64,000 nt of DNA from a virus. Positions within the stretch are counted from its first letter, which is position 1. Every line of letters begins with the position of its first letter. Below the pieces are notes generated by a model. The model did no database searches. It saw nothing but the letters and a program-made list of their open reading frames with translations, and was not told where the DNA came from. The stretch covers positions 1-64,000 of IMG/VR virus record IMGVR_UViG_3300042691_042551. The stretch is one strand, 5' to 3'. A program made the position numbers and the translations under genes. Shown here in pieces: positions 5,528 to 42,100 of this stretch.

Positions 5528-5767
5528 ATGGAATACGGAACGATACTAAAGCAGCTACGGAAGAGTAGCGGTAAGAGCGCATCGGAGGTTGCACGTCATT
5601 GTGGGGTAACGGCCAATACGATATACAACATAGAGAAAAGCAAGGCCGATGGCTCATACGGTCTTGTGTCAAGCTATTTGTCCTGCCTTGGGTTATCACT
5701 GGTAATAGTGCCAGATACAAGTTTGGAGCTTGCAAGAAAACTAAAGATTGGAAAATCAGACACATAG
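5528..5767 (+). CDS. Cro/CI-type (XRE) helix-turn-helix regulator (79 aa)
   Basis: Residues 5-60 follow the XRE helix-turn-helix pattern: ILKQLRKSSGKSASEVARHCGVTANTIYNIEKSK, with the recognition helix around 'TANTIYNIE'. The protein is a single DNA-binding domain with a short C-terminal tail and no peptidase or ligand domain, as in Cro or plasmid-type antitoxin regulators. It is the only plus-strand gene between two leftward clusters, and has a dyad directly upstream, so autoregulation and control of the divergent genes are likely. No toxin partner is visible next to it. Confidence 0.85.
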   Translation: MEYGTILKQLRKSSGKSASEVARHCGVTANTIYNIEKSKADGSYGLVSSYLSCLGLSLVIVPDTSLELARKLKIGKSDT

Positions 5768-6321: not shown

Positions 6322-6597
6322 CTATTTAAAATCTAATTGTTGAAGATCTTTAATTGGATAGCCATCTACTTTGACAAAGGATACCGGGCCCGAATACACG
6401 GCTGATATCTTAAGCATTTCGTCAAGGTACTTATCAAATTGGCTTTTAGAACAAACAAATGAATTGTTGTTTCTTTTGGCTAATTCAAAAGCATTACGCC
6501 TTGTTGCGGTTCCGTAAACGATTAGAGAACCTTCTTTCTTCAGGACTACCAAGTTTTCTGATGCGCCTGATTTGTTGATTACATTTATGTTTTTCAT
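6322..6597 (-). CDS. Hypothetical protein with repeated leader (91 aa)
   Basis: ATG at 6597. A mixed alpha/beta product (NLVVLKKEGSLIVYGTATRRNAFELAKRNNNSFVCSKSQFDKYL...) without a recognised family. Its start is preceded at exactly 10 nt by the shared leader hairpin of this cluster (copy A), which suggests common control with the genes at 6632, 7004 and 7931 despite unrelated protein sequences. Confidence 0.55.
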   Translation of the reverse strand: MKNINVINKSGASENLVVLKKEGSLIVYGTATRRNAFELAKRNNNSFVCSKSQFDKYLDEMLKISAVYSGPVSFVKVDGYPIKDLQQLDFK

Positions 6598-6631
6598 GAC
6601 CTATTGTGGCTTAATATGGTAAGCCTTACCA
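6598..6631 (-). promoter_or_regulatory. Leader hairpin, copy A
   Basis: On the minus strand a 15-bp dyad (6617-6631, TGGTAAG around a central base) precedes AAGCC (6608-6612), which can pair instead with GGCTT inside the dyad. The two pairings exclude each other. The AAGCC end lies 10 nt before the ATG at 6597. The same arrangement recurs at 7001, 7394 and 8264. Confidence 0.65.
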
Positions 6632-7000
6632 TTAGTTGTTTTTGTTTAATTGTGTTGATAATTCTGCTTCCCATTTATCTGTTAATACTGCAAGTTTGAA
6701 GATGCCACTGCAACCGGCTAAACGAATATGGCCTTTAATTACGCCTTGCTCTACCAATACATCAGCAATTCCTTCATTCTCTGAATAGTCTTTAATAACA
6801 AGTAGAGGAAATTCAGGATATCTGCTTTCAGATGGTGTGTCTCTCCAAATCGTTTTCCAATGATCAGGAATGTATTTGGTAATTTCCATGTAAGGTTCGT
6901 GAGTTGATAGTTCAACTGCAGTCAAACAAAATGTTTTGTTCAACAAAATGTCAAGCACTAAATAGCACTCAACGCCATTAATCATAATTGTTTTTTTCAT
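6632..7000 (-). CDS. Hypothetical protein with repeated leader (122 aa)
   Basis: ATG at 7000, starting MKKTIMINGVECYLVLDILLNKTFCLTAVEL. The TAA stop touches leader copy A of the next gene. The protein is beta-rich at its start, has a Trp-rich middle (IPDHWKTIWRDTP) and a C-terminal 'IKGHIRLAGCSGIFKLAVLTDKWEAELS'. No family is recognised. Leader copy B precedes its start and overlaps the 3' end of the upstream gene. Confidence 0.55.
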   Translation of the reverse strand: MKKTIMINGVECYLVLDILLNKTFCLTAVELSTHEPYMEITKYIPDHWKTIWRDTPSESRYPEFPLLVIKDYSENEGIADVLVEQGVIKGHIRLAGCSGIFKLAVLTDKWEAELSTQLNKNN

Positions 7001-7034
7001 GACCTATTGTGGCTTAATATGGCAAGCCTTACCA
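7001..7034 (-). promoter_or_regulatory. Leader hairpin, copy B (inside an upstream gene)
   Basis: The dyad (7020-7034) and AAGCC element (7011-7015) match copy A except for one base that keeps the pairing as G-T. Here the element also codes for the last residues (GKACHIKPQ) of the gene at 7004-7393, so the RNA structure is preserved inside coding sequence. It lies 10 nt before the ATG at 7000. Confidence 0.65.
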
Positions 7035-7393
7035 TTGTTTTTTATTCTTTCTTTAAGCTCTTTAATCCTTGTGGAATCAAAGCATTGTATAAAACCATTT
7101 TCCACATCTATTTTAATGAATGCACATGTGTAAGAGTTTAATACTCCATCTACCAATTTGATACCAAATACCTCGTTTATGAATTTAGCGTTTGATGACC
7201 ATTCACCACCATGGCCAGGTCGGTTGTTAGGGTTTTTGGACATTATTCCAAAAGTATACCAACGGAATGCACCATCCCTGTAAAATCTTAATCTAACTTC
7301 ATCTCCGTTAGGCATTTGTTTTGTAAAGTTTTCTACAAAGTATTCATTCCAGTTTGAACCAATGTAGTCATGTTTGATATCTATTTTTTTCAT
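7004..7393 (-). CDS. Hypothetical protein, TCAFIK family (129 aa)
   Basis: ATG at 7393. Residues near 90 read 'NSYTCAFIKIDVENG'; the neighbour at 7523-7837 has 'NSSTCAFIKCIMKVND' in a similar place, so the two may be distant paralogues. The first half is rich in aromatic and charged residues (VRLRFYRDGAFRWYTFGIM). The last nine codons lie within leader copy B of the next gene. No known family is recognised. Confidence 0.55.
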   Translation of the reverse strand: MKKIDIKHDYIGSNWNEYFVENFTKQMPNGDEVRLRFYRDGAFRWYTFGIMSKNPNNRPGHGGEWSSNAKFINEVFGIKLVDGVLNSYTCAFIKIDVENGFIQCFDSTRIKELKERIKNNGKACHIKPQ

Positions 7394-7427
7394 GTTTCTA
7401 TTTGGCTTGATTTGGCAAGCCTTACCA
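7394..7427 (-). promoter_or_regulatory. Leader hairpin, copy C
   Basis: The dyad (7413-7427) and AAGCC element (7404-7408) are conserved; only the loop between them differs from copies A and B. The spacing to the ATG at 7393 is again 10 nt. Confidence 0.65.
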
Positions 7428-7460
7428 TTGTTTTTTATTAACTGATAGCGACATTGCTAT

Positions 7461-7516
7461 CATTGTTCCCCTGCACTCCGCAAAGAGTGTTACAGCCATT
7501 TGGCCCAAGGGAAAAA
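7461..7516 (-). repeat. 56-bp structured repeat, copy 1
   Basis: Identical over 56 bases to 7873-7928. It can fold as a three-way junction: outer stem 7466-7470 with 7509-7513, one arm 7474-7478 with 7485-7489 (6-nt loop), and a short arm 7495-7497 with 7502-7504. It lies 6 bases beyond the stop of the gene at 7523-7837. There is no T-run on either strand that would make it an intrinsic terminator. Confidence 0.8.
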
Positions 7517-7522
7517 AGAAGA

Positions 7523-7837
7523 TTAAGAAAGCATCATAGGATTATACCTAAGTACAGTTCTTTCTTGAGGTAAAAAACCGCTAATCTCGTTTTCAACCTC
7601 TCCAACATCAACCCAATCCCCAAGGTCGATAGAATAGGTTGATGAATATTTTCTATCATTTACTTTCATAATGCATTTAATAAATGCACAAGTAGAACTA
7701 TTTGACGCAATTTCAAACCCAATGATTTCATCAGGCGGGAAAAGCTCCATAATAGAGGCAAATACTTTTTTGCCTAATTCTTTGTTGACGTAAGTTCTTA
7801 GAACCCACGATTCAATAACTGCATTAAATTGTACCAT
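7523..7837 (-). CDS. Hypothetical protein, TCAFIK family (104 aa)
   Basis: ATG at 7837. Shares 'STCAFIK' with the product of 7004-7393. N-terminal helix (VNKELGKKVFASIMELFPPDE), then beta-rich sequence with 'YSIDLGDWVDVGEVENEISGF'. Its upstream region lacks the conserved leader dyad of its neighbours but holds a weaker CCTA/TAGG hairpin about 12 nt before the ATG. It is bracketed by the two copies of the 56-bp repeat. Confidence 0.55.
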   Translation of the reverse strand: MVQFNAVIESWVLRTYVNKELGKKVFASIMELFPPDEIIGFEIASNSSTCAFIKCIMKVNDRKYSSTYSIDLGDWVDVGEVENEISGFLPQERTVLRYNPMMLS

Positions 7838-7872
7838 ATTCTAATTGTGCCTAATCAATTGGTCATAGGACA

Positions 7873-7928
7873 CATTGTTCCCCTGCACTCCGCAAAGAGT
7901 GTTACAGCCATTTGGCCCAAGGGAAAAA
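7873..7928 (-). repeat. 56-bp structured repeat, copy 2
   Basis: Identical to copy 1 at 7461-7516. It lies 2 bases beyond the stop of the gene at 7931-8263, so both copies sit just downstream of a stop codon in the direction of transcription. Flanking sequences differ, so the repeat unit has sharp edges. Confidence 0.8.
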
Positions 7929-7930
7929 CT

Positions 7931-8263
7931 TTAGTTGAAATAAGTATCAACTAAAGCTTTGTCTTGACAAGCTTTACGCAACTGGTAAACTTGCTCTTCT
8001 TTTCTTTTGCGAGCTTCTTCTTTTCTTTTGCGAGCTTTCTCAAACTTGCCAATGATTTTAATCTCTGGCGTTTCATCAGCCTTGTCAAACGCACAAAGAA
8101 TAAGAGAAACAACTACACACATAACTGATATGCCAAAGAACATGACATAATCATTACGATGTAGATTAAGAGGATGCCAACCACCAACAGGTGTAGCAAG
8201 CATTACAAGAAGCATAAGAACTACTGATACTACAAGTATCACAACGTTTCTGGTCTTTACCAT
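7931..8263 (-). CDS. Two-span membrane protein with charged tail (110 aa)
   Basis: ATG at 8263. Two hydrophobic segments, at about residues 7-27 (VVILVVSVVLMLLVMLATPVG) and 40-61 (VMFFGISVMCVVVSLILCAF), are followed by a highly charged tail (KARKRKEEARKRKEEQVYQLRK). The tail contains a seven-residue tandem duplication encoded by a 21-bp DNA repeat. The positive residues suggest the tail is cytoplasmic. Leader copy D precedes the start. Role unknown; host-takeover membrane proteins can look like this. Confidence 0.55.
   Translation of the reverse strand: MVKTRNVVILVVSVVLMLLVMLATPVGGWHPLNLHRNDYVMFFGISVMCVVVSLILCAFDKADETPEIKIIGKFEKARKRKEEARKRKEEQVYQLRKACQDKALVDTYFN
7993..8034 (-). repeat. 21-bp tandem duplication inside a gene
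   Basis: Two adjacent 21-bp units (7993-8013 and 8014-8034) differ at two or so positions and encode the repeated KARKRKEE/ARKRKEE phrase. The length is a multiple of three, so the frame is kept. Probably replication slippage. Confidence 0.7.
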
Positions 8264-8297
8264 AACTAGACATGGCTTGAGAGTGCAAGCCTTACAC
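8264..8297 (-). promoter_or_regulatory. Leader hairpin, copy D, with compensatory changes
   Basis: The dyad here (8283-8297) has outer bases GTG/CAC where copies A-C have TGG/CCA, so both arms changed and pairing was kept. The AAGCC element (8274-8278) and the 10-nt spacing to the ATG at 8263 are unchanged. This copy is the best evidence that the dyad itself is selected. Confidence 0.65.
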
Positions 8298-8460
8298 GTA
8301 AGTTTAATGGTCGAACGATGATGATGCGAGCGAGTGCGATGCCGACCGATGATCGCGAGCGCCCGTGAGTGAAAGGGGGGGGGCCGTGAAATTCGAGTGA
8401 CCCCCGGGGGGGGAGAAACCGGAAACCGAGAAGGCCCCCAAAAAGGGGGTGTAGTACCCT
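8298..8460. other. GC-rich, G-run segment before the terminase genes
   Basis: This segment is far richer in G and C than the rest of the window. It has a near-direct repeat (8316-8332 and 8347-8361, CGATGAT then GCGAGCG), G9 at 8375-8383, C5G8 at 8401-8413, and a CCCCC/GGGGG hairpin with an A5 loop at 8435-8449. No credible gene lies in it. It directly precedes the packaging genes, so a packaging (pac/cos) or origin role is possible; G-quadruplexes could form. Confidence 0.5.
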
Positions 8461-8490: not shown

Positions 8491-8519
8491 TTTGATGTAT
8501 GTAGAATAGTATATATTTG
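8491..8519 (+). promoter_or_regulatory. Bacteroidota-type promoter of the late operon
   Basis: TTTG (8491-8494), a 17-nt spacer and TATATTTG (8512-8519) fit the TTG / TAnnTTTG consensus of Bacteroidota. The ATG of the first packaging gene follows 4 nt later, so the leader would be nearly absent. It is probably the start of the long rightward transcript. Confidence 0.65.
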
Positions 8520-27172: not shown

Positions 27173-30100
27173 ATGGAAACTGGAGACCCTAAAAAACAAA
27201 AAGCTCAACAGGTAAAACAAGAAGTTATTGAAAACTCACCTGAATTGCAAGATGCATTGCATGGACTTAATACAGCTCAAAAAAGAAAAGATGATGTATT
27301 AGCCAATAAAATTGATCAGGTGTGGAAACCTATTGAGCGTTCCGATAAAGAAATAGCTGAAGCTTATAAACGTGCACCGGAACCAATAAGTCCTGATGAA
27401 CAAGAAGTTGAACTAAGAAATAAAGAAAGTATAGCTTTTTTGTTAAAGGCTAAATACGGCTATAAAAATGATGCTGTAATATTAAGTCTTGCTGAAAAAG
27501 CTATGCGTTATCCGGAATTTAAAAACAAGATAATTTCTCATAAAAGCTTAGTCCAATTACAGGCAGAAGAAGATGCTGCTAAATACGAGCTTAATGAAAG
27601 CATGAAAAAAGCACAATCTGGGTTTAATGCATCATTAGCCGCAAGCGGTGAAACTACTGAAGACTTTAGATTGCAAGACGAACAAATAGTAACAGCTAGA
27701 CAAAAATACGATAAAGCAAAATCTATAAAATCTGCTTATGAAGATGCTATAAGAAGAGATCCGGCATTTGTTGAAAAGCAAAAGTTTGATTTAATGCGTT
27801 CTTTGATAGATGTGGATATGAAATATAGACAATCTATTGCAAACAATGCTATTCGCAAAATAGGTGGACCAGATAAAGCAATAGAAGTTACTGAGGCCAA
27901 TTCTCAATACAATTACTTGCTTCAAGAACAACAAAAAGCTGAATCGCTACTTCAAGATCCAAATTATCCAGCCGAGAAAAAACCTAAGCTAGAAAAATAT
28001 TTAAACGAGCAACTACCAATACTTATTAAGCAAAAAGAAGATCAGTTACGAAAATTTGGTAACGTATCGGAAGAGGTAAAAAAACTGGAAGATGCAAGTA
28101 AAACTGCTATTGAATCTTATCAAACCATAAAAGAGGTGTTAAATGAAAGTCCCGAAACCTTAAAAAGCAATAAGGAAATTGCACTTAGGTTAATGGATAG
28201 AGCTAAAACAATAGTAACTACAGGTGGTGTACAAGAATTAGTTATACCAGATTTAGGCAAAAGTTTTGGTTTGTCGTTTGCCGGAACCATAGTTGACATG
28301 GGTGAGTTTTTTACAGGAAAAACATCTGTAGGGGATTTTATAAAAAGAGAAATTGGCATAAATGAACAAATCACCGAAAAAGAATGGGGTGGAGGCAAAT
28401 GGATGGTTAATATTGCTTCCGCAGCAGGTGCGACTGCTCCATATTTAATATTAGGAGGTATTGGTGGTGGGGCAAGAGCTGCAACAGCAAAAATGCTAAC
28501 TGCTAGGTTTGCAACCAATATTGGAGGAAAAATAGCAAAAGCCGGTGTTAACTATTTAACAAACACGCTATTATCGCCAGCAACTTATGGATCCCTTGCC
28601 GGTGTGTATACAAATTCATTTGATCAAGAGTTTTCCAATTTAATCTTAGCCGGTAAATCACCTGAAGAATCATATAACATTGCAAGCAAAAAAGCTACTG
28701 CTGATGCGGTAGTTAACGTAATTTCTGAAGGTATATTTGACGAGGCCAGTGTAATTTTTAAAGGTAGTGGAGTAAACCAATGGATTGCAAAAACTGGTTT
28801 TGGTCAATTTTTGCAAGAGTCAAATGTATTGGATGCTATGTCAAAAGGAAAATACGGTATGGCTCAAGAACTTGGCAAACGTGTATTTAACTCATGGGCC
28901 AGCGAAACTTTAGAAGAAGTTGTTGCTATGGGTGGCGAATCATACAACAAACACATGGTTAATATTCTTGCTCAGCAAGAAATTTACAAGGATATATTAC
29001 CTACAATGCATGAAGTAGGTGTAATGTTAGGTTCTGTATTGCTTACTACCGGAGCTATGACTATGGCTAATCGTGGAAAGTCCATAGATATAGAACTTGC
29101 TGAAATGTCAAAATCTGGTTATGATAAGGCTGTAAGAGGGTTTAAAACCTTAGTTGATACGGGTGTATATAGCGAAGAAGAAGTTAAACCGTATATGGAT
29201 AAACTACAGCGCTATTCAAATTTATCTATGGCTATGGCTAGAAACGCTTTGCCGGAAGATATTGTAAAATACGATAACCTATTAAATCAGCAAGAAGAGC
29301 TCAAAAAAAACATGAGCAATCCATCTATATCACTTGGAGAGAAAAATCGCTTACAGTTTGAGATAAATAGCATTGAGGCGCAAAAAAATGAGCTTTTTCA
29401 ACAAGCCGTTGTCAACAGTGTTGAAAAAGAGATAAGTGACAAAATAGAAGCTAAAAACAAAAGTTTTATTGAAAACAATAAAAAACAAGTTGAAAAAATA
29501 AAAGCCGAAAGTAACCAAAAGGGTGCAACAAAAGAAGAGCAAGCAGCTTTAAACTATCTTGAATCAACCACCAATAACGTATCTGAGGAAGCAAAAAAAA
29601 ACGGACTTCTTTCATCTTCTATTACTAATGTAAATAGTTCTATCGCTCAAACCGAAGAACAGTTACAAAAAGAAGAAAACTTACTGAAACAGTTAAAGCA
29701 GGAAAAAAATGAACGTGGCGTAGCCGCGCAAGAAGAAAAGGTTGCTGAAGTAAAGAATCAACTTGATAACTTAAATCAGGTAGCCGTTGGTTTAAAAAGC
29801 TTGCAATCTGCACAAGAAGCAAAAGTGGGTGATGGTTTAGCCGCTAGGGGTAAATCTACTACTACTGGAACAGTAAAACCTTCATCTGAGGTTGAAAAAA
29901 CTATTCAAGAAAAAAACCAAGCCAAACCAATAACAAAAGCTGAAGAAGCTACAAAAATGCCTGAATTTCAGGAACTATTAGCATCTTACAAAACCGAAGG
30001 ATTAACCAAAGAACAGGTAAGGCAAAGGCTAATTGACCAATTTGGCGATAACATGTCGGGTAAAGAATTTTCAAAACTTGAACAGAGTTTGAATAATTAT

Positions 30101-33100
30101 GATGTGGCCCCTGCTCAAACTGCTAAAGAAAATGCTCCTCAGCAGCCTCAAGGAAAACAATTTGCCGCCAGTCCTGCAGCAACTAAAACATCAAACTTTT
30201 ATAGCAAAACAAACGGAAATACTATAAAGGTTGAAACTCAGGAAGATGGAACAAAACAAGTTGTTGAAATAGACCAAAAAACTAAAAAAGAAGTTAAACG
30301 TACTTCTGTACCTGAAGCGCAATCAAAAAAATCTGATTTTGAAATAGCTTCAGAAATTACTGGTCAAAAGCTAGACAAGCAATTTACCGGTAAAACCAAA
30401 AAAACAGCTAAAAAAAGCGATAGTGAATATGTTGCTGAAGCCAAAAAAACTTTAGGTGAAAATGTGCAAGAAAGCGATATAGCCGAATATGTAAGAAAAA
30501 AAATTGCTTCTGGCGAGTTGGATATGAAAACAGCAAAACGAGTAAGCACGGCTTTAAAAAATGCCTTTCTAGATAAAAAGGGAAAAGCTAGACAAGCTCG
30601 CGGAAGAAAAAACCAAGAAGAGGAAGCAAAAGCCGAAGAACAACGCAAAAAAGAAGTAAATGACCTTATTGAGCAAGCTGAAAGCGCAAGAGAAACCATA
30701 AGACAAGCTAATCAGTTGCAAGAAGTGTTTCAAGAAGCAACACAAGAAAGTGTAGTACAGTCTGACACTCATGAAGCTGCAGTCGAAGCTGAAACTGCCA
30801 AAACCAAGGCTAATGGTATAGGAAGCCTGAGCAAAAAAGAAATAATGCTCATGAACATCAAAAACATAACAGGAAAGGTGTTTAGTGGCGTTATGGGTTT
30901 TCACAAACAAGCAATGGTTGATGGCAAATTTGTTGAAGAATCATACAAACGGGTTCAAGAGATGATTTATGAACAGTTTAAATCATTAATGATGAACAAG
31001 TTTGATCTGGACTTGACCACATACGAAAGAAATGAAGAAGGATATCTACTGTTTGACGAAAACGATGAAAACGTAGAAGCATTAACTGAAATGAATCGAG
31101 TATTGAGTGTGTTTGATCCCAACGTGGCAGAAATACTACTTGAATCGATTGACGATACCGCCAAAGTGTTTGGCGAAAAAGGGGCTAATTTTCACGCCCT
31201 TATAAAACACGCTATTTCTGAATTGGGTAAAAGTTATGGCTTTCCTAATTATGCAGCAATAGAAGAATCGGTAGAAGATGCAGAGGTTCTCGAGCATACC
31301 GCAGAAATACTAGAGTCAGGAGAAAGCATTTTGCAGGAAGTTATTGACAAGGAAATGAACAGTAAAGCTGTCAAGTCCGCAGAAGCTATTGCAAAACTTG
31401 CTCATGCTGTTTTTCTTCAAAAAGCCAAGAACGCTAATGTAAACGTAAGCATTAACCCGGACTATTCGTTATCGTTTTTGATGCCATTGTTTAAGGGAGT
31501 CAACGGACAATCGAGAACGATAACGGACGTGTTGAATTATATTCAAGCAAGATTAGCTAGCGAAAACCATCCTATAAATGATACTCAGGGAAGATTGCTT
31601 ATGGAGTCTATCGGCCAGGTTTTGTACGATTTGCAAAACAAAATGTATGAACAAACCGATGGTATCAATGAGTTGAAACAAAATCCAATGACTATGACCT
31701 TTATAGAGCGTTCATTGTCAAGTATTTTTAATTCTCAGATAAGTGATGTTTATGCCACTTATTTGTCTGCAAAAGGCAAGGTATCTGTATATGTTGCCAA
31801 CCGAGACAAAATTAAAAAAGACGTAATTTCTCAAATACGATCTGAAGTACGGAATTTTGTTCAGTCTATATATGCCGTTTCTGATTTAGAAGGTGGCCAA
31901 AGACGTTCTCGCTTTATACAAGCTATTGCAAAAGTAAGAATGAATATAGACAATCCCGAATCTGTATTATTTGCTGGTGACGAAGTTTTATTGGCAATGG
32001 GTAACGAGTATCCATACATTAAAGATATTTTAACAAGGAAACTTGATGCCATAAGAAACACAACAGTAAAATCTCCAACACAAGTAGAAGAGGTTGGAAG
32101 ATACATTTTAATGCTCAGTTCACCACAAGCTGCAAATCTGGAAAGTAATCCAATGATTGAGCAAATGGCTTTTGAGCAAATAGCTAACTCTGAAAAAATA
32201 TTTGGCAAAATATCTCAAAGCCAGTATTGGTCAAATCGGTTAAGCCAAAATCAAAGCGCTGTAAAAAGGCCCAATAGAATGTCAAGTTCTATTTCTGAAG
32301 CAAAAGCAGAGGCACTAAACAACAAGAAAAAACCTACTGAAGATGCTCAGAAAAACGATATGGACGATTCTGTAAATGTCGTAACCAATTCAAAAAACAG
32401 AAATTTTGGTTCCGAAGGTTCAGATCGAAAGGCTCGACTAAGCAAAAACCCGCTTGTAGCAATTAAGTCAATAGCCAAAAACTTATCTGTAACCATGTTA
32501 GGCGAGTTTTCTATTGAAAAGGGAAAAACTATTGCTTTAAAAGCTGAAAAAATGTCAAGGGAAATGGTACATTTAGCTAAGATTGCTATGTTTTACCAAA
32601 CCAAAAACTTTGGCAAGTACGGGTATGGTGTAATTGATCAAGTAAGTGATTCTCCAAGAATACACATGATTAATGGTGCACGTATACAGTTAAATGGTGA
32701 AAACAAGTTTGTATTTGCCGGTGATGTAAAATATCCAGGAAGTTTGATTGAAGATGGCTCTTTGCTTCTTGATGCCGTTCAAACTGCGGTTATGAAAGCA
32801 AAAGAAATGTTTCCGGGAATTACCATTAAACAAATGGAACAGCATATACCGTCATTCTACAAGATTGATGGTACCGGAAAAGTAACATATAATCCAACAG
32901 CACTTGAAAATGAAGCTTTTAAGTCATTTAACGACTACATTAAGGCTAAAAGTAAAATGTACTATGATCCTAAAGCCGGAGATTCAATAGCCAAAACAGA
33001 AAGGGCTTATAAAGCAATACTTGAAGCAACAAAAGAACTTTACTATGCTAATGACTACAAGACAGGTAAAGAAAACTTTGAGAAGAAGATTGCCTTTATT

Positions 33101-36100
33101 AAAAACAACCGAGATATGGAGGTTACTAAAGGAATGTCCGATTTCGCGAAGAATTTAATTGACAATGATCAAATTGTCGAATGGTCTAAGAAAAAGAAAG
33201 GAAACTTTAAAAACTTCTTCAAAGAATTTGTTGCAAACGAAGAGTTTAATCGATTTTATGCAAATCAGTATGTCCGCGGTGATTTAGAAAGCTACATGAA
33301 CCTTGACCCGGATAATGTTTTTGTTCGTTCAAAAATGATAACAGCTCCAGGTATAGGTGTAAACGTAGATTTACCAATGCGATACATGATTTTGGATAAA
33401 AATCTGTACAATGGAAGCGACAAAATAATGCTTGATGTAAACGGAAATCAGGTGCCTTGGGTACCAAATGATGGTGTTATGTTTTTGTCTGAAGGTGCTG
33501 GAAACGTAATTACTGCAGGTGTTGGTCCGCATCATGGATACAGAGGAACATTTAAGTATGCTATGCACTCGGTAAATGACCAAAACGTAGCTACTTCTCA
33601 TAAAGGTATGCAGATAGTATTGACAAAGAAGCTGGCAGAATCAAATCCGGCTTTAATGTCAATATATAACATGATGAAGGAAAACAACTTGGATGCGGTA
33701 CTTGACCATTCAGCAGAAAAAATAGGTGCTGAAAAAAGAACCAAAGCCGGATGGAACGAAAGCGGTGTAACTCTTGAAGAAGCCCCTATTGTGCATACAG
33801 CCAATTTTGGGGATATTTATGTTCAACTTTCGGTTTCTGAAAACCAAAAAGGAATGTGGTCGAAGGATTCTGACCAAAAAAACAGACAAACGCCATTGTA
33901 TGCCGGTAGCAGCGAACAGGGTATTGAGTACGTAAACAAGATTCAAAACTTTATAGCGAACAGAATAAAAAGTGGAGTATTTAACTCTGCGCAACGAAGC
34001 GCAAGGTTTAACAAGTTAATGAATAATTACAGGTTCAGTACTGAAGAAAACAAACAAGAAGCCAAAGATGAACTTATTAGCTACTTAAAAAGAAAATCTA
34101 AAAGAGAACCACTATCTGTAAGGGAAAAATACAACCAAATTATCAGCAGGATAGAAACAGGTTATGTATTTGAGTACGATGATGGATTATTGTATCAAGT
34201 TCACGCATCAACTTTTAGGGAAGGTATGTCAAATAGAATGGAATCGTTTTATATGGCATTGACCTCACCATTGCTTGGCAAAGAACAACCAAAGTACAGA
34301 TTAGAAGATCGCCCAGGTTTTTCAGAAGTTGTATTGCCGGCAAAAATGAAAGAATTGCTTAGCGATTATGCAGATAATGATGGTAACTATTGGGTAACTG
34401 GTGTGAAAATACCATATAACAACTCCGCTACTCAGCTACGAGCAAAAGTAATTTTTGACGAAAGTTTGGATGATAACGGTTCCAATGTTATTCCACCGGC
34501 AGAATTTTACGCCTTGTCCAACTCAGATAATGACGGAGATAGACTATTTATCTTTCCAATGCATCCAAATCCGGAAAATATAGTTTCGCCTTTAAAAGAG
34601 TTTGGAATTAACATAGATGAAAACACAACATTTGACTCATTATTAAGCGAATACACTACAAAATCTCAAGAAGATGATTGGAATGGTCCTTCGTTTGACT
34701 ACGTATCTATGTTGTATGAAGATTACCTTGCTGCTAAAGAACTGGAATACAACGGAAAGTTGTTTAACGATGTAGCTTTTGCTCAGCAAATGGCTGTTCA
34801 GTCAAATGACGTTAATGTGTTTCTGTCAGTTGTGGAATCTGAAGGTTATAAAACTAAAACCAAAAACACGTCTTCAAATGAGGGCCAATTACAACGCGTT
34901 ACAGAAAAGAATTTTTCTGCTGGTGGTATTGGCACTGCAGCATCATATATCCGTTCTATATCTCAATTTATTCAGCTTGGAATGGATTACGGATTGCGTG
35001 TAGCAATGAGATCTTCACGATCAAAGCCGTATTTGTTTAATTTCAACAATGAGGTATTTGATCCGGCTGTTATGGAAACTGTTCCTACGTTAAATCAAAA
35101 ACCGATTAATATAAGGGATATTGAAAGTCAAGCAGTTCAAAAAGCTATTGCCAACAATCCAGATTATGCAAATCTCACCCCTGATTTACAAGAAAATCTT
35201 GTAAGTAATGAAAGAAATAAGCTATTGCAAGAACTTGAATCATTGGTTGAGGAAGAATCAATGCTTAATACGCAAAACGCGACTTCTCAAATACTGCAGG
35301 TTTATGTGGATGCTGTTAAAAAAGGTTATTTGAATAAGGTTGGACTAAATAATCAGAATATGCAGGTGTTTATACACCTTGCAACAAGATTAGGGCTCAA
35401 CGAGAAAGTTCCGGGCCAAGGCATAAGAATGGCTTTAAGACTTGTTAATCAGCCTATTGTTAAAAAGTATTTTGAACTGACTGAGTACAATCCAATGATT
35501 CAGGATCAATACTCCCAGAGAGATTACGAGTTAATTGATAAACTAAAGAAAAATCTGGCCGAACTGGTACCTAACGATATGCAAAACAACATCAATACCC
35601 TTGATGTGAACCTAAACGCATTAAAAAATGAGTACAATGGAAAGCATATACAAGATACTGAATACAATACTGAAAATCAACTTATAGGTGACTATGCGTT
35701 GGCGCAAATTGAAGCCATAAAAGCACTGGAATCTTTACTTGATATACAAGCTGCGGTAAGTCCGTACAGTTTAAATTCTAAGAAGTTTTCAGAAGTTCCT
35801 ACGACAATAGAAGAAGCAAGGACATTTATCCATGAAATGGAAAAATATCAGGCATTAGCTACCGATGAAGAGGTTAAGGCGACATTGAAAAAAATAGAAA
35901 ATGCTCAAAGGACTGGTAAAAATGCAAACCTTGTAATTTCGGAAATGCTGCAAAACAATGGCCGGTATTCAAGTCCAATGGTATTTAATGTTCGAAATGA
36001 TGCAGACAATTACCAAAGGCTTGTAAATTCATACGAATTTTTAAAGCAACTGAACGACAAATCAGGTCCATTATACGAAAAAGAAAAAGGCAAATATATT

Positions 36101-39100
36101 GAAGCTGGCTTTAGCGAAAGCGCTATTAGTGATATGCTCAATAATCTAGCTAAGATACATACTAACATGTTGCTAACCGGTAACATGCACGTTTTTGAAA
36201 ACCAGGAAATGTTTGCTAAAGCTGAAGGTTATTTTATGATGATGGCTTCAATAGCAGATTCAAATACTGCTTACGATTCCAAAAACAACAAAATGGTTTT
36301 TGATTTTATGTCAAGGTTGTTTCCAAGAGCCGGCAAAATGTTTCACAAGTTAGTTGGTAAGTTTCAAGAAGGATACAACAGACAAATATTACAAGAGGTA
36401 TTAAGCCAAAAAGTAATGCTTTCTGAAAATCAGAAAAAAGACTTCAGCTATGCAATGTCTAAAATACTGAAGGTTTTGTTTGAAAATAAACAATACTTTT
36501 CCGGTAACTTATTTTTGAATAACCTTGAAATTCAAACATTTGAGGACAAAAACATACTACCAATACGAGTAGAATCAGACGGTTCTGCAGTATACATTGA
36601 CAAACATTATGTCCTTGAAGATGGAATATTTAAGCAGGCTAATCTTGTTCCAATAAACAAGTTGACAGATGCTATCATTTTTAATGATGTGCTTAAAACA
36701 GATCCACTAAGAGCGTTTTTAGACGTTATACTTGGCAATCAGATATTGTCCGAAAACATAATGTTTGATGAAACAAGAAAGCGTTTTGTCAATAAAAAAA
36801 CAGGGTATATTTACGGAAGTGAGAAAAACACACAAGCATCTGATGTAAAAGATTCTGAACGCATATTTACTGCTGGTACCACATCTGTACCCGAATACAG
36901 AGAGGCTTTAATATCGTTGGCCAGTGATATTTTTGGAACCATCAGGCAATCTAGCTTAGAAGGTATTGAGAACGAAAGCACAGAAACCATGTGGAATTGG
37001 GCAGCAATGATGTATTTTGACAAAAACGAAAACCAAAGGTTATCTCCAAGATACAATACGCCTCAAAACGAAGAAATAACTTTAAGCCAAAATGGACGTG
37101 TGACTTTTAGCCAAGAGCAATTAAAGGATATAGCCAATGGAATATCTACTTTGTTTGATGGATTGAATAACATACGGTACAATGCAAATGGTGAAGCAAT
37201 TGGAACTATTGCAGATGCTATACGGTATGAATTGGAATCAAATCAAATCGATGAAGGGTTTCTTTCGGAAGATATTATATCCAATCCGAACGCCTGGTTA
37301 CTTTATTTTTCAAATAACAATACATACCCTCAGGTAGAAAAATTACTAGGTATTCTCAAAGCTGATAATGAAGAAAATCATGCTAATATTAGGAGTTTGA
37401 TTAACGAAAACTTTCTGGGCTATGACATGATAAGCTTTGCCAAAAACTCAATAAAAACAATACTTAATAATCCTACACTTACTCAATTTTATGATCAAGC
37501 TATGATTTCTCAAATGAAAAGCGATGATCCTAAAGCACAAAGTATTGCCAAAAGACACGAGTTTTTCCATACTAAGTTAGATAACGGACAAATAGTGCTT
37601 TATAAACGAGTTCAAGCCGGGTATACAGAAACAAAGAATTTCTTTGGTCGTTTTCAAAAAGTACCAAACTACAAATACATTGCCATTGGTAGATACAGTT
37701 CTAATGGTGAAGTAGAACGGTCAATGTTTACCAATGGTCGCCTTGAAAGCAGTGTTGATGGCGTATTGCAATTACTAACCCAAGAAGGTGTTCATAATTT
37801 AGATTACGATAGCGCGATTAAGAAAATAAGCGAGATAATATACGGTTCATCTTCTGGAAGTATTGATACTGTTGGTTTTCTAGCTGATATTCAGAAAAAG
37901 TTTGAAACTCTCAAATCGGAAAAATTCAAGAAAATACGCGGTTATAACCACCCCGAGTTTTTTGATATGATGATTTCAGAGTTTGAGCAAGCCGTTGTAA
38001 AAGGAATATACGATAACAAAGGCGATGTGTTTAAAGATACTAAGGCTCAGCTATTGCTTCAAACAATCAGAGCAATAAGAAGTGTAAAACAGGCAAATGA
38101 TAAACTGTTTGTAAACAACAACTTTGTTATTGACAATGCTGAATTTACCGAAATAACCAATGCTCCTATTGACTCTCAAAACACAAGAGAAAAGGCAAGA
38201 CGTGCAACTAATCGAGTATGGCAACGTAATGCCGAATCTCAAACATTATCTGCATTTGACATAGCCAGAAACATTGTAGAAACATTAAAAGGAAACGTTT
38301 CTACCACTAGAAGCAAATCATTGTTTGAGTATTTGGAGGTGAAAAGCAAAGGAAACAAAGGAAGAAGAATTGCACAAAGCACTTCAGCCGGTTCCGGACC
38401 TAAAATGTTTTCTAACGTCAACGATATGATTGACTTGTTTCAGGCTCAGCTTAATGGAAATCCATTATTAGGTAGCGTAGCTAAGTTTTTAAAAGAACAA
38501 GTGGGTGGAATACCGGTATCTGTTGTTGACAATCAAGAATTTGAAGCATTGGAACAAAGCATATTTGGAACAACCGGTACCGCAAGAGCCATTTACATAC
38601 CAAGCCAAAGACAGATTGTATTCAATGGAGATAGAAGTTCATTAGACGCTCCTGAGCTTATTATTCACGAAGCGTTTCACGCATTTACTAATGCAGCTAT
38701 TAATGACCCTAACAATGTTGATTTAAGAAACGACATGGTAGAGTTAAGAAACGTAGTGTTTAACTCAAATTACCGATTAAACACTACTAACCCAATGGCC
38801 GTGCAAACCCTTAATGACATATTTGCCGATCCAAACCTTGATGAATTTGGTCAAATGGAAGAAATTATATCAGAAATGTTTTCTGATAAAACTGGCCAGA
38901 TGCAAGCTTTATTGAACAACATTAGGGTTGGTCAGGGTACTCTTGAACAATATAAAGGTGAAAACAAAACTTTATTTGGTAAAATACTCGATACGATATC
39001 AAAATATCTTGCAAAAATGGGAATTGGTAAAAACACCGATTCAGTACGTCAAGTCCTTGAAAACATATTGACAACGTACGAAGATATAATGACATATGAA

Positions 39101-42100
39101 AAAGCAATGCCTCAGCATGTTACATCAAATATATACGAGTACAACGGGAGGACATTTGTAAATAGCAATCAACTTGTTAACGATAACTACGGTGTTAACC
39201 AAAACACAATGGAAACCATTGCTAACGATATGGGTATTAGCATAGGCAGAATCATCAAAATGGCTGAAGATTTAGATACTGCATCCGATTTTTTGCATCA
39301 GTTTGTAATGGATAATGTTCTTGGAAGAAACTCAAACCACAATAGAACTGAAGCAAAAAGAATGATGGCCGGCTTTAATTCAAATGTTGTAAACAACATA
39401 CCAGATGATATTATGCGTCTGTTTGATTCAAAAATGAACGGTTGGACTATTGATGAAGATTTATCTCAAGGATCTTACTTCTCAACCGGCATGATGGTTT
39501 CTGGAAACAACAACATTGTTTCTTTCAATAATCAAGGGGATGTAAAAGTAACCAGTATTGGGGCTTCATTTAAAGAAAGCGATTATTCAGTTTATGATAC
39601 TCAAAGTCCTATTTTAAACGCAAAAGCTGCTCATAAACAAAAACTTATGATGAAGGCTGCAATACAAGGTGTGTTTTTAGAAGGTCAGGGCTATCCGGTA
39701 AAAAAACTTGAAATTATTGTTGCTGAAGCCAATGGTGTAGTTGGTGGGGCCGAAGCTATTGAAATGACAATGGATGAAGCAAGAAGTATTGTAAGAGCTT
39801 ATGTTATTGACAAGGTTGCAGATCGCATGGGCGCTTTTGAAGCAATGCCAATAAGTAATGAGGACTTTATGAAAAATCCTCAGAACATATATGGCAATTA
39901 TTACATTGATAAAGCCTTATCTGCATTACGCGATATTACCGATGAAGATAGAGAAGCACTTCGCCAGGGTTTTAAAAAGAATACAATGGTTAGTCTTGGC
40001 AATGTGGACCTAGAAGCTCAGGTATCGCTTTATGAGCAATCGTATAATAACGTAAAAGCATTGCTAAAAAGCGGAAGTATTGAAAACATGACTGAAAAGG
40101 ACATGATTGAATTGCTGGGTGACATTAAGCATTTAGAAAGAATGAGTGATGATGCTGATGTTTCCGGGATAAAATCAATCTTAAATGGCATTACCGATGT
40201 AATACTGATGCAGCGAGAGGGAAATACCTTAAAAGAGTCAATAGCTATATCAAAAGCATCTAATGTTACAGACATCGCTCAGTGGATTCCTTCCATTACC
40301 AATTCACTTCAAACCTTAAACCTTGGAGTTAACACGTCCGAAATAACAGATACCATTGCTCACTCAATCGAAGAAAATCAGAATGAAGCACAAGATTTTC
40401 AAACCAAATTGAGAAAAGCAGCCATAGAAGCTGTTAAGTCAAGAAATGTTCGTTTTGCTAAAGCAAGAGCGACCTTGAACAAATACTATTTGAGCGATAA
40501 TCCATTAGAGAAAGCTTTTCAAAGATTAACGGTGCCTTATTATGGTTCGGTTCAAACTACACGGCTTAAATCTCTTAGCGAAGCTTCAGTTGACTTAGCA
40601 AATGGAAACATTACTCAGGCAGAATATGAGTTATTGCAGTTAGTAAATGGTTTTTATCAAAAAAACGCAAGATACATATACAATAACAAGGGTGTCAACC
40701 ATGGTGGTTTATCATCTGAAGGTGCAGCTATATTTGAAACTCCGGCAAACGATAGACAATTCTTCTTACCATACTACCCAAGCAAAGTATTTGAACGGTA
40801 TAAAAACAAACCAAAAGCATTTGCTGCATTGGCTTCTTACTGGCATAATTTCAGAAATAACAGTTCTGAATTACAGAATGTTAAGTTAGATTCATACGAG
40901 TTTCGGGATGCAAACGGTTCTTTAGTTCGCGTATTTAAAAACAGTACAGTACGTGAGATAATGAAAGAAATGGAGGATTTGGAAAGAAAAGAAGGTGAAT
41001 TAAGAAGGATTGCTTTCCAACGAAACCCAAATGCAGTATTGCCACAGGCCAAGTATTCAACAGAAAAAGCAATTAAAAACCTATACGATGCTGCTATTAA
41101 AGCGGATAAAGGTAAAAATGCACAAAACCAAAGCAAACAGCAACAACACACAATGACGTTGCCGGGCATGGTTCGAACTAAAGAAAACGTAGCTAATGGA
41201 AACATGTTTTCAAATCTGATGAATTATTCCGGTGAGGTTTATAAAGCAAAAGCACTAGTTGAATCAAGGGGTGCGTATTCAATATTGGACATACTTGCAG
41301 CAAACTTAAACCTGAATGAAATCCGAAACTATATTGATTGGGATGAACGCGTTAGATTGCTAAAACAGAAATACAAAGAAGATAAACACGAGTTTATACA
41401 TCAAGTAGCTCGTTTTGCTTCTTCAATGGCCAGATATGCACAACTTGCATTTAAGATACCAAATGCTATGTTTGACTTTGCAGCAACATCATTAAGTGCT
41501 GCTACGGCAATGGACGGCATTACAAAAGAAGATAAACTTGCTTGGGCCAAATACATTGGGAACGCATCATTTGTAAATTATCCATTCGCTGTAATGAAGC
41601 TTGTCTATAATTTTCATGAAATACGCGATATAGCATTGGCTTTTGGGTTGTTTAATCATAGAGATTACTCTACAAGAAAAAAATCACCATTAGGGCTTGT
41701 AAAAGGGGCTATGTTATTAAACTACTGGCTATCTGGCAATATACCCAGGTTGGTATTTTTGGCCGATCAATTAACACTAAAAGATCTCAAGAACATACAA
41801 AATATCACTCAAACCAATAAAACTGGCGAATGGCTAAGTTTTCTTACCGGGCAACGTGAAAAACGCGATATACTGAAAGGTTTAGATAAACAAACCCTTA
41901 CAAATGTAAGGCGTGCATTAGATCGGACTGAAAATGAATTAGGTAAATTTAGAAATTCAACGGAACGTATTTATTTGTCAAATGGCACTATTTCAGCATT
42001 TATGCAGTACAAGTCGTGGGCACCAGATTTAATATGGGCGCGTTTTGGTGGAGAGTATAAAACAAACGGTGTAACTTACATGGGTAGATACAGAGCTTTG

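What the first reader, a model, noticed from the sequence alone, without database searches (positions are those of the whole stretch)
6598..8297. Four genes share a switch-like leader hairpin at a fixed 10-nt distance from the ATG
Leaders at 6598, 7001, 7394 and 8264 hold a 15-base dyad and an AAGCC element that can instead pair with GGCTT inside the dyad. The AAGCC end is exactly 10 nt from each ATG. In copy D both arms of the dyad changed (TGG/CCA to GTG/CAC), a compensatory change. One copy lies inside coding sequence. The proteins are not alike, so the element itself is being kept or spread. It could be a translational switch or operator.
Basis: seen in the sequence. Interest (0 to 1): 0.76.

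Follow-up and report, generated by a model that had tools for sequence, protein, structure and literature searches.

The report
Palindrome before early crAss-like phage genes
A short mirror-image DNA sequence sits at a nearly fixed distance before several early genes of a crAss-like bacteriophage and is kept in its one known relative while the genes behind it change, so it is probably a control site for early genes, but the proposed RNA on/off switch is not supported.

Summary
Four minus-strand leaders carry a 15-nt dyad (NNGYAA-GRC-TTRCNN) and an AAGCC exactly 10 nt before the ATG. One copy overlaps the 3' end of a gene, and copy D shows the compensated arm change. The window is a crAss-like phage. 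Its only detectable relative (L033; capsid protein 73%, terminase 71%) has two orthologous leaders. There the dyad survives with further compatible changes (GTG/CAC to CTG/CAG; T.G to C-G). The competing GGCTTR/YAAGCC pairing is broken in both (AAACC; AAACA), so the two-state switch is not supported as a conserved feature. The dyad is confined to the first genes of the early block and was not found in known phages. Both phages carry Bacteroidota-type promoters before structural genes (9/49) but none before early/replication genes (0/82). Both encode a Cro/CI-type regulator beside the early block and a DxDGD RNA-polymerase-like motif in a giant ORF. Best reading: a lineage-specific, start-proximal palindromic control site acting on early transcription, as promoter element for the phage polymerase or operator for the regulator. 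An RNA hairpin acting on translation is the main rival. No binding factor is shown.

The parts
6598..6631 (-). Leader A: dyad 6617-6631 (TGGTAAGGCTTACCA), AAGCC 6608-6612, 10 nt, then the ATG of ORF 6322-6597
7001..7034 (-). Leader B: dyad 7020-7034, AAGCC 7011-7015; overlaps the 3' end of ORF 7004-7393, whose stop is 3 nt before the ATG of ORF 6632-7000
7394..7427 (-). Leader C: dyad 7413-7427, AAGCC 7404-7408; orthologue of C' in L033 (2183-2226), joined in the window to the N-terminal remnant of a gene that is full length in L033
8264..8297 (-). Leader D: dyad 8283-8297 (GTGTAAGGCTTGCAC), AAGCC 8274-8278; first gene of the leftward block; orthologue D' in L033 (3280-3313)
8298..8400 (.). 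G+C-rich non-coding stretch upstream of leader D, conserved in the relative
8492..8519 (+). Bacteroidota-type promoter (TTG-N17-TATATTTG) of the rightward structural block, divergent from leader D
5528..5767 (+). Cro/CI-type HTH regulator (79 aa), orthologue in L033 1135-1422; candidate dyad-binding protein (inferred)
34526..34540 (+). DNDGD motif (residue 2452 of the 5152-aa ORF 27173-42631), kept in the relative; RNA-polymerase active-site-like motif of a putative virion RNA polymerase
7931..8263 (-). ORF behind leader D, small membrane protein by its two hydrophobic stretches
7004..7393 (-). ORF behind leader C, no family match
6632..7000 (-). ORF behind leader B, no family match
6322..6597 (-). 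ORF behind leader A, no family match

Best explanation
The element is a lineage-specific palindromic control site placed 16-19 nt before the start codons of the first genes of the early (leftward) block of a crAss-like phage. It most likely acts on the DNA, at initiation of early transcription: either as part of the promoter read by the phage's own virion-type RNA polymerase, or as an operator for the phage's Cro/CI-type regulator encoded at the other end of the early block. Shown: the sites, their position, conservation with compensatory change, confinement to the early block, absence of host-type promoters in that block, presence of the regulator gene and of an RNA-polymerase-like motif. Inferred: that the block is transcribed early, that the site acts on transcription, and which protein reads it.
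For: Six copies in two phages, all in the first about 2 kb of the block that opens away from the structural genes. In phi14:2 a similarly organised early operon is transcribed by the virion RNA polymerase (as reported in PMC8375218). TTG-N17..24-TAnnTTTG promoters lie before 9/49 structural genes but 0/82 early/replication genes of the two phages (Fisher p = 9e-5), so the early block probably uses other start signals. The D leader is among the best conserved DNA of the early region. Both phages keep an HTH_3-type regulator on the opposite strand next to the block. Both keep NSDNDGDR in a giant ORF. The dyad hairpin is weak as RNA (-2.7 to -5.4 kcal/mol) and in copies C and D a different hairpin is 3.5-4 kcal/mol more stable, which does not trouble a DNA site.
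Against: No binding or transcription data. The outer two pairs differ between copies yet stay complementary (TG/CA, GT/AC, CT/AG), which fits pairing within a single strand better than sequence recognition of a duplex; by chance about 0.02-0.055. The distance to the ATG is nearly fixed, which a promoter does not require. No comparable hairpin recurs in the early leaders of phi14:2 or crAss001. The recognition helices of the two regulators differ (TANT against SVPA) although the dyad core is the same.
Confidence: 0.45

Rival explanations
1. RNA-level control: the dyad folds as a hairpin with a 3-nt loop in the mRNA leader and is bound by a protein, or shields the 5' end, to control translation or stability of each early gene.
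For: Sense-strand pairing is kept in all six copies, T.G pairs included; outer pairs change in a compensated way; near-fixed distance of 19 nt from dyad to ATG in five of six copies.
Against: The hairpin is weak and is not the most stable fold in copies C and D; copy B lies inside translated sequence; no Rfam match.
Confidence: 0.3
2. Two-state RNA switch: the dyad hairpin alternates with a GGCTTR/YAAGCC hairpin, or the two combine as a pseudoknot.
For: Both pairings are possible in all four window copies, with R/Y covariation in the sixth pair; in A and B the predicted ensemble holds both folds.
Against: The second pairing is broken in both orthologous leaders (D' AAACC, C' AAACA) without partner change and is no better than shuffles (241/500). 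Neither state covers the ATG.
Confidence: 0.08
3. The element is a passive repeat: copies spread with duplicated or shuffled gene cassettes and mark recombination joints, without regulatory function.
For: The region is mosaic: identical 56-nt repeats, a truncated N-terminus (MIAMSLSVNK) in the window of a gene that is full length in L033, and a block shared between different genes. A and B leaders are near identical.
Against: D/D' and C/C' are orthologous and the dyad is kept with compensated changes while neighbours diverge; nearly fixed distance to the ATG.
Confidence: 0.12

Closest known systems
N4 virion RNA polymerase early promoters (PMC4496689)
   Same: Early genes; small hairpin with 3-nt loop; fixed core and variable stem pairs that stay complementary; polymerase carried in the virion.
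   Different: N4 uses a T7-like polymerase and a template-strand hairpin with a GC-rich heptamer. Here pairing is best on the non-template strand, the loop is G-R-C, and the polymerase motif is of the two-barrel type. Start sites unknown.
Start-associated and extended start-associated sequences of cluster K mycobacteriophages (PMC3203893)
   Same: Repeated element just upstream of start codons of different non-structural genes, about half with an inverted repeat; kept while genes differ.
   Different: Different sequence; SAS contains a Shine-Dalgarno core 3-7 bp from the start; ESAS uses paired 17-bp repeats with a spacer.
Inverted-repeat operators of Aca HTH regulators (PMC9410906)
   Same: Small phage genes, an HTH regulator nearby, inverted repeats upstream of the genes.
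   Different: Aca sites lie in host-type core promoters in front of an acr-aca operon; here no host-type promoter is present, the regulator is on the opposite strand, and binding is untested.

Membership tests
RNA two-state switch / riboswitch | Two mutually exclusive pairings, both conserved in relatives | tested here: not met
   Dyad conserved; alternative pairing broken in both orthologues
RNA two-state switch / riboswitch | Match to a described RNA family | tested here: not met
   No Rfam match at gathering threshold; only a sub-threshold match elsewhere at E = 0.26
N4-type hairpin promoter | Hairpin with 3-nt loop, fixed core and variable complementary stem | tested here: met
N4-type hairpin promoter | Hairpin on the template strand | tested here: not met
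   Four of six copies have an A.C mismatch on the template strand and were predicted unfolded there (RNA parameters)
N4-type hairpin promoter | Transcription starts at a fixed distance, driven by the virion polymerase | not testable with these tools
   No transcript data; only a DxDGD motif in a giant ORF, no profile match
Cluster K SAS/ESAS | 13-bp GGGATAGGAGCCC with Shine-Dalgarno core 3-7 bp from the start | tested here: not met
   No such sequence in any of the six leaders
Cro/CI-type regulator with palindromic operator | HTH regulator gene near the controlled genes | tested here: met
   window 5528-5767, L033 1135-1422
Cro/CI-type regulator with palindromic operator | Operator in the regulator's own promoter | tested here: inconclusive
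   Degenerate GTAAAACTTGC about 30 nt before the L033 regulator, none in the window, where other palindromes occur
Cro/CI-type regulator with palindromic operator | Protein binds the site | not testable with these tools
   needs a binding assay
crAss-like phage (carrier of the element) | crAss-type terminase, portal, capsid and muzzle proteins | tested here: met

The most novel reading that the evidence does not exclude
Probability: 0.12. Interest if true: 0.8.

Novelty: new variant of a known kind. Interest (0 to 1): 0.42.

Why it matters
I found no described promoter signals for virion RNA polymerases of crAss-like phages in the held papers (the primary phi14:2 paper was not held). A short, sharply defined, conserved site in front of the early genes of two crAss-like phages gives a concrete sequence to test for polymerase, regulator or RNA-level control, together with a candidate regulator gene.

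Tried and rejected
(1) Two-state switch and H-type pseudoknot: the second helix is lost in the relative. (2) The 27 viral contigs matching AAGGCTTGCCNNATNAAGCC: none has several copies, and the matches recur as a few near-identical sequences that look like coding sequence. (3) Eight of nine contigs matching the wider dyad pattern: 0/8 have both outer pairs complementary; the ninth is the relative. (4) Wider distribution: distant blastn of leader C against known phages gave only two weak unrelated hits. (5) Further relatives: scans with TerL, MCP and a TerL segment found only L033; GTDB genomes gave none. (6) Recurrent hairpin leaders in phi14:2 and crAss001 early blocks: none seen. (7) I first read leader C as a clean insertion relative to L033; the full comparison shows instead that most of a gene is missing in the window. 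(8) tRNA explanation of the 56-nt repeats: no tRNA found. (9) Homology of gene A with the gene behind C', suspected by eye: no BLASTP alignment.

Full report
What the window is. The window is part of a 72,690-base IMG/VR virus record. Terminase, portal and capsid proteins match PHROG families of those kinds and ORF 19380-24416 matches the Pfam crAss muzzle protein PF25731. The closest named phages for terminase, portal and capsid are mostly crAss-like, at about 21-28% identity, so this is a divergent crAss-like phage. Structural genes run rightward from 8524; the block starting at 8263 runs leftward.

Observation. The four leaders are as described, on the minus strand. In gene sense: A TGGTAAGGCTTACCA-TATT-AAGCC-N10-ATG; B TGGTAAGGCTTGCCA-TATT-AAGCC-N10-ATG; C TGGTAAGGCTTGCCA-AATC-AAGCC-N10-ATG; D GTGTAAGGCTTGCAC-TCTC-AAGCC-N10-ATG. 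Three of the four contain a T.G pair. A weight matrix separates the copies (20.3-25.7) from all other sites in both phages (at most 14.6, apart from the same sites read on the other strand).

Relative. A scan with the capsid protein found one relative, L033 (contig IMGVR_UViG_3300034061_005646, 65,154 bases; capsid 73%, terminase 71%). No other was found in IMG/VR or GTDB genomes. It has two orthologous leaders: D' CTGTAAGGCTTGCAG-ACTC-AAACC-N10-ATG and C' TGGCAAGACTTGCCA-AATTAAACAAAATAAA-ATG. D and D' precede the first genes of the block in both phages; C and C' follow the same gene, which in the window is reduced to its first codons (MIAMSLSVNK). The D leader is 82% identical over about 130 positions with the match ending at the ATG, whereas the D proteins, both small and hydrophobic and alike in pattern by eye, give no BLASTP alignment.

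Dyad against alternative pairing. On the alignment of six leaders (A3) the dyad is paired in 36/36 cells, with two pairs changed on both sides and a covariation score of 0.489 against 0.186 in shuffles (1/500 reach it). With only six related sequences this is suggestive, not proof; a simple estimate of the outer-pair complementarity by chance is 0.02-0.055. The alternative helix GGCTTR/YAAGCC is paired in 89% of cells, no better than shuffles (241/500), and is broken in C' and D'. This removes the main support for a conserved switch. In the window copies the second hairpin taken alone is the more stable one as RNA (-5.5 to -6.9 against -2.8 to -3.4 kcal/mol), so an RNA role of the first hairpin would be disturbed by it, most of all in C and D; a duplex-DNA role would not.

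Context. The dyad occurs nowhere else in either phage, and known phages gave no match beyond two weak unrelated hits. Bacteroidota-type promoters TTG-N17..24-TAnnTTTG lie within 90 nt upstream of 6/29 structural genes of the window phage and 3/20 of the relative, but of 0/46 and 0/36 early or replication genes (Fisher p = 9e-5; a few stray ORFs on the other strand were left out, one of which, in the replication block, has such a match). The TAnnTTTG consensus is that of Bacteroides (papers listed). A rightward copy sits at 8492, just before the structural block. So the early block probably uses other signals. In crAss001 early genes form a separate module, and in phi14:2 a similarly organised operon is transcribed by the giant virion RNA polymerase (PMC8375218). 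Here the 5152-aa ORF has NSDNDGDRLFI, kept in the relative as NSDNDGDRIFI, comparable with SDFDIDK in the phi14:2 protein; no profile or sequence match confirms it, so the polymerase assignment is an inference. Both phages also have a Cro/CI-type regulator on the opposite strand at the far end of the early block (window 5528-5767, L033 1135-1422, 39% identical over 56 residues).

Mechanism. The simplest account is a DNA control site for early transcription, as promoter element or operator. Against a plain duplex operator, the outer pairs vary but stay complementary, which resembles the N4 promoter rule that non-conserved stem bases need only keep the hairpin (PMC4496689). Against an N4-like template hairpin, four of six copies pair poorly on the template strand, and no such hairpin recurs in phi14:2 or crAss001. 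An RNA hairpin acting on translation is the main rival and is favoured by the G.U pairs and the near-fixed distance to the ATG. I put the DNA reading at 0.45 and the RNA reading at 0.3.

A post hoc observation: TTAAA[AC]C lies within 40 nt before 8/29 early genes of phi14:2 but 3/96 others. It resembles the TYAARCC that follows the dyad. The motif was chosen after looking, so this is only a lead.

Verdict. A real, conserved, lineage-specific start-proximal palindrome; probably regulatory; not shown to be a switch; binding factor unknown.

Noticed in passing
window 7461-7516 and 7873-7928 (minus strand); L033 3032-3086: A 56-nt sequence, identical in both window copies and about 95% kept in the relative, follows stop codons of early genes and folds as a three-way junction (-21 to -23 kcal/mol); no Rfam or tRNA match. 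Possibly a terminator or processing element.
   Followed up: partly
window 8300-8400; L033 3314-3420: G+C-rich non-coding stretch with long G/C runs in an A+T-rich phage, conserved between two metagenomes, between the divergent blocks; could be a promoter region, terminator or origin.
   Followed up: partly
both phages, structural against early blocks: Bacteroidota-type promoters precede structural genes (9/49) but no early or replication genes (0/82).
   Followed up: yes
window 7431-7463 and 8039-8080; L033 2222-2785: Mosaic early genes: the N-terminus of an L033 gene is left as a 13-codon ORF ending in dyad C, and another block of it (ADETPEIKIIGK) is in gene D of the window.
   Followed up: partly
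window 34526-34540 in ORF 27173-42631: DNDGD RNA-polymerase-like motif in a 5152-aa ORF without any profile match; kept in the relative.
   Followed up: partly
L045/L046 (phi14:2), early leaders: TTAAA[AC]C within 40 nt of the start in 8/29 early genes against 3/96 others; a possible early signal, chosen post hoc.
   Followed up: partly
L033 2770-2830 (minus strand): A stem with a T-arm-like hairpin (CTCGGTTCGACTCCGAG) between early genes, at about the place where the window has its second 56-nt repeat; not called as tRNA.
   Followed up: no
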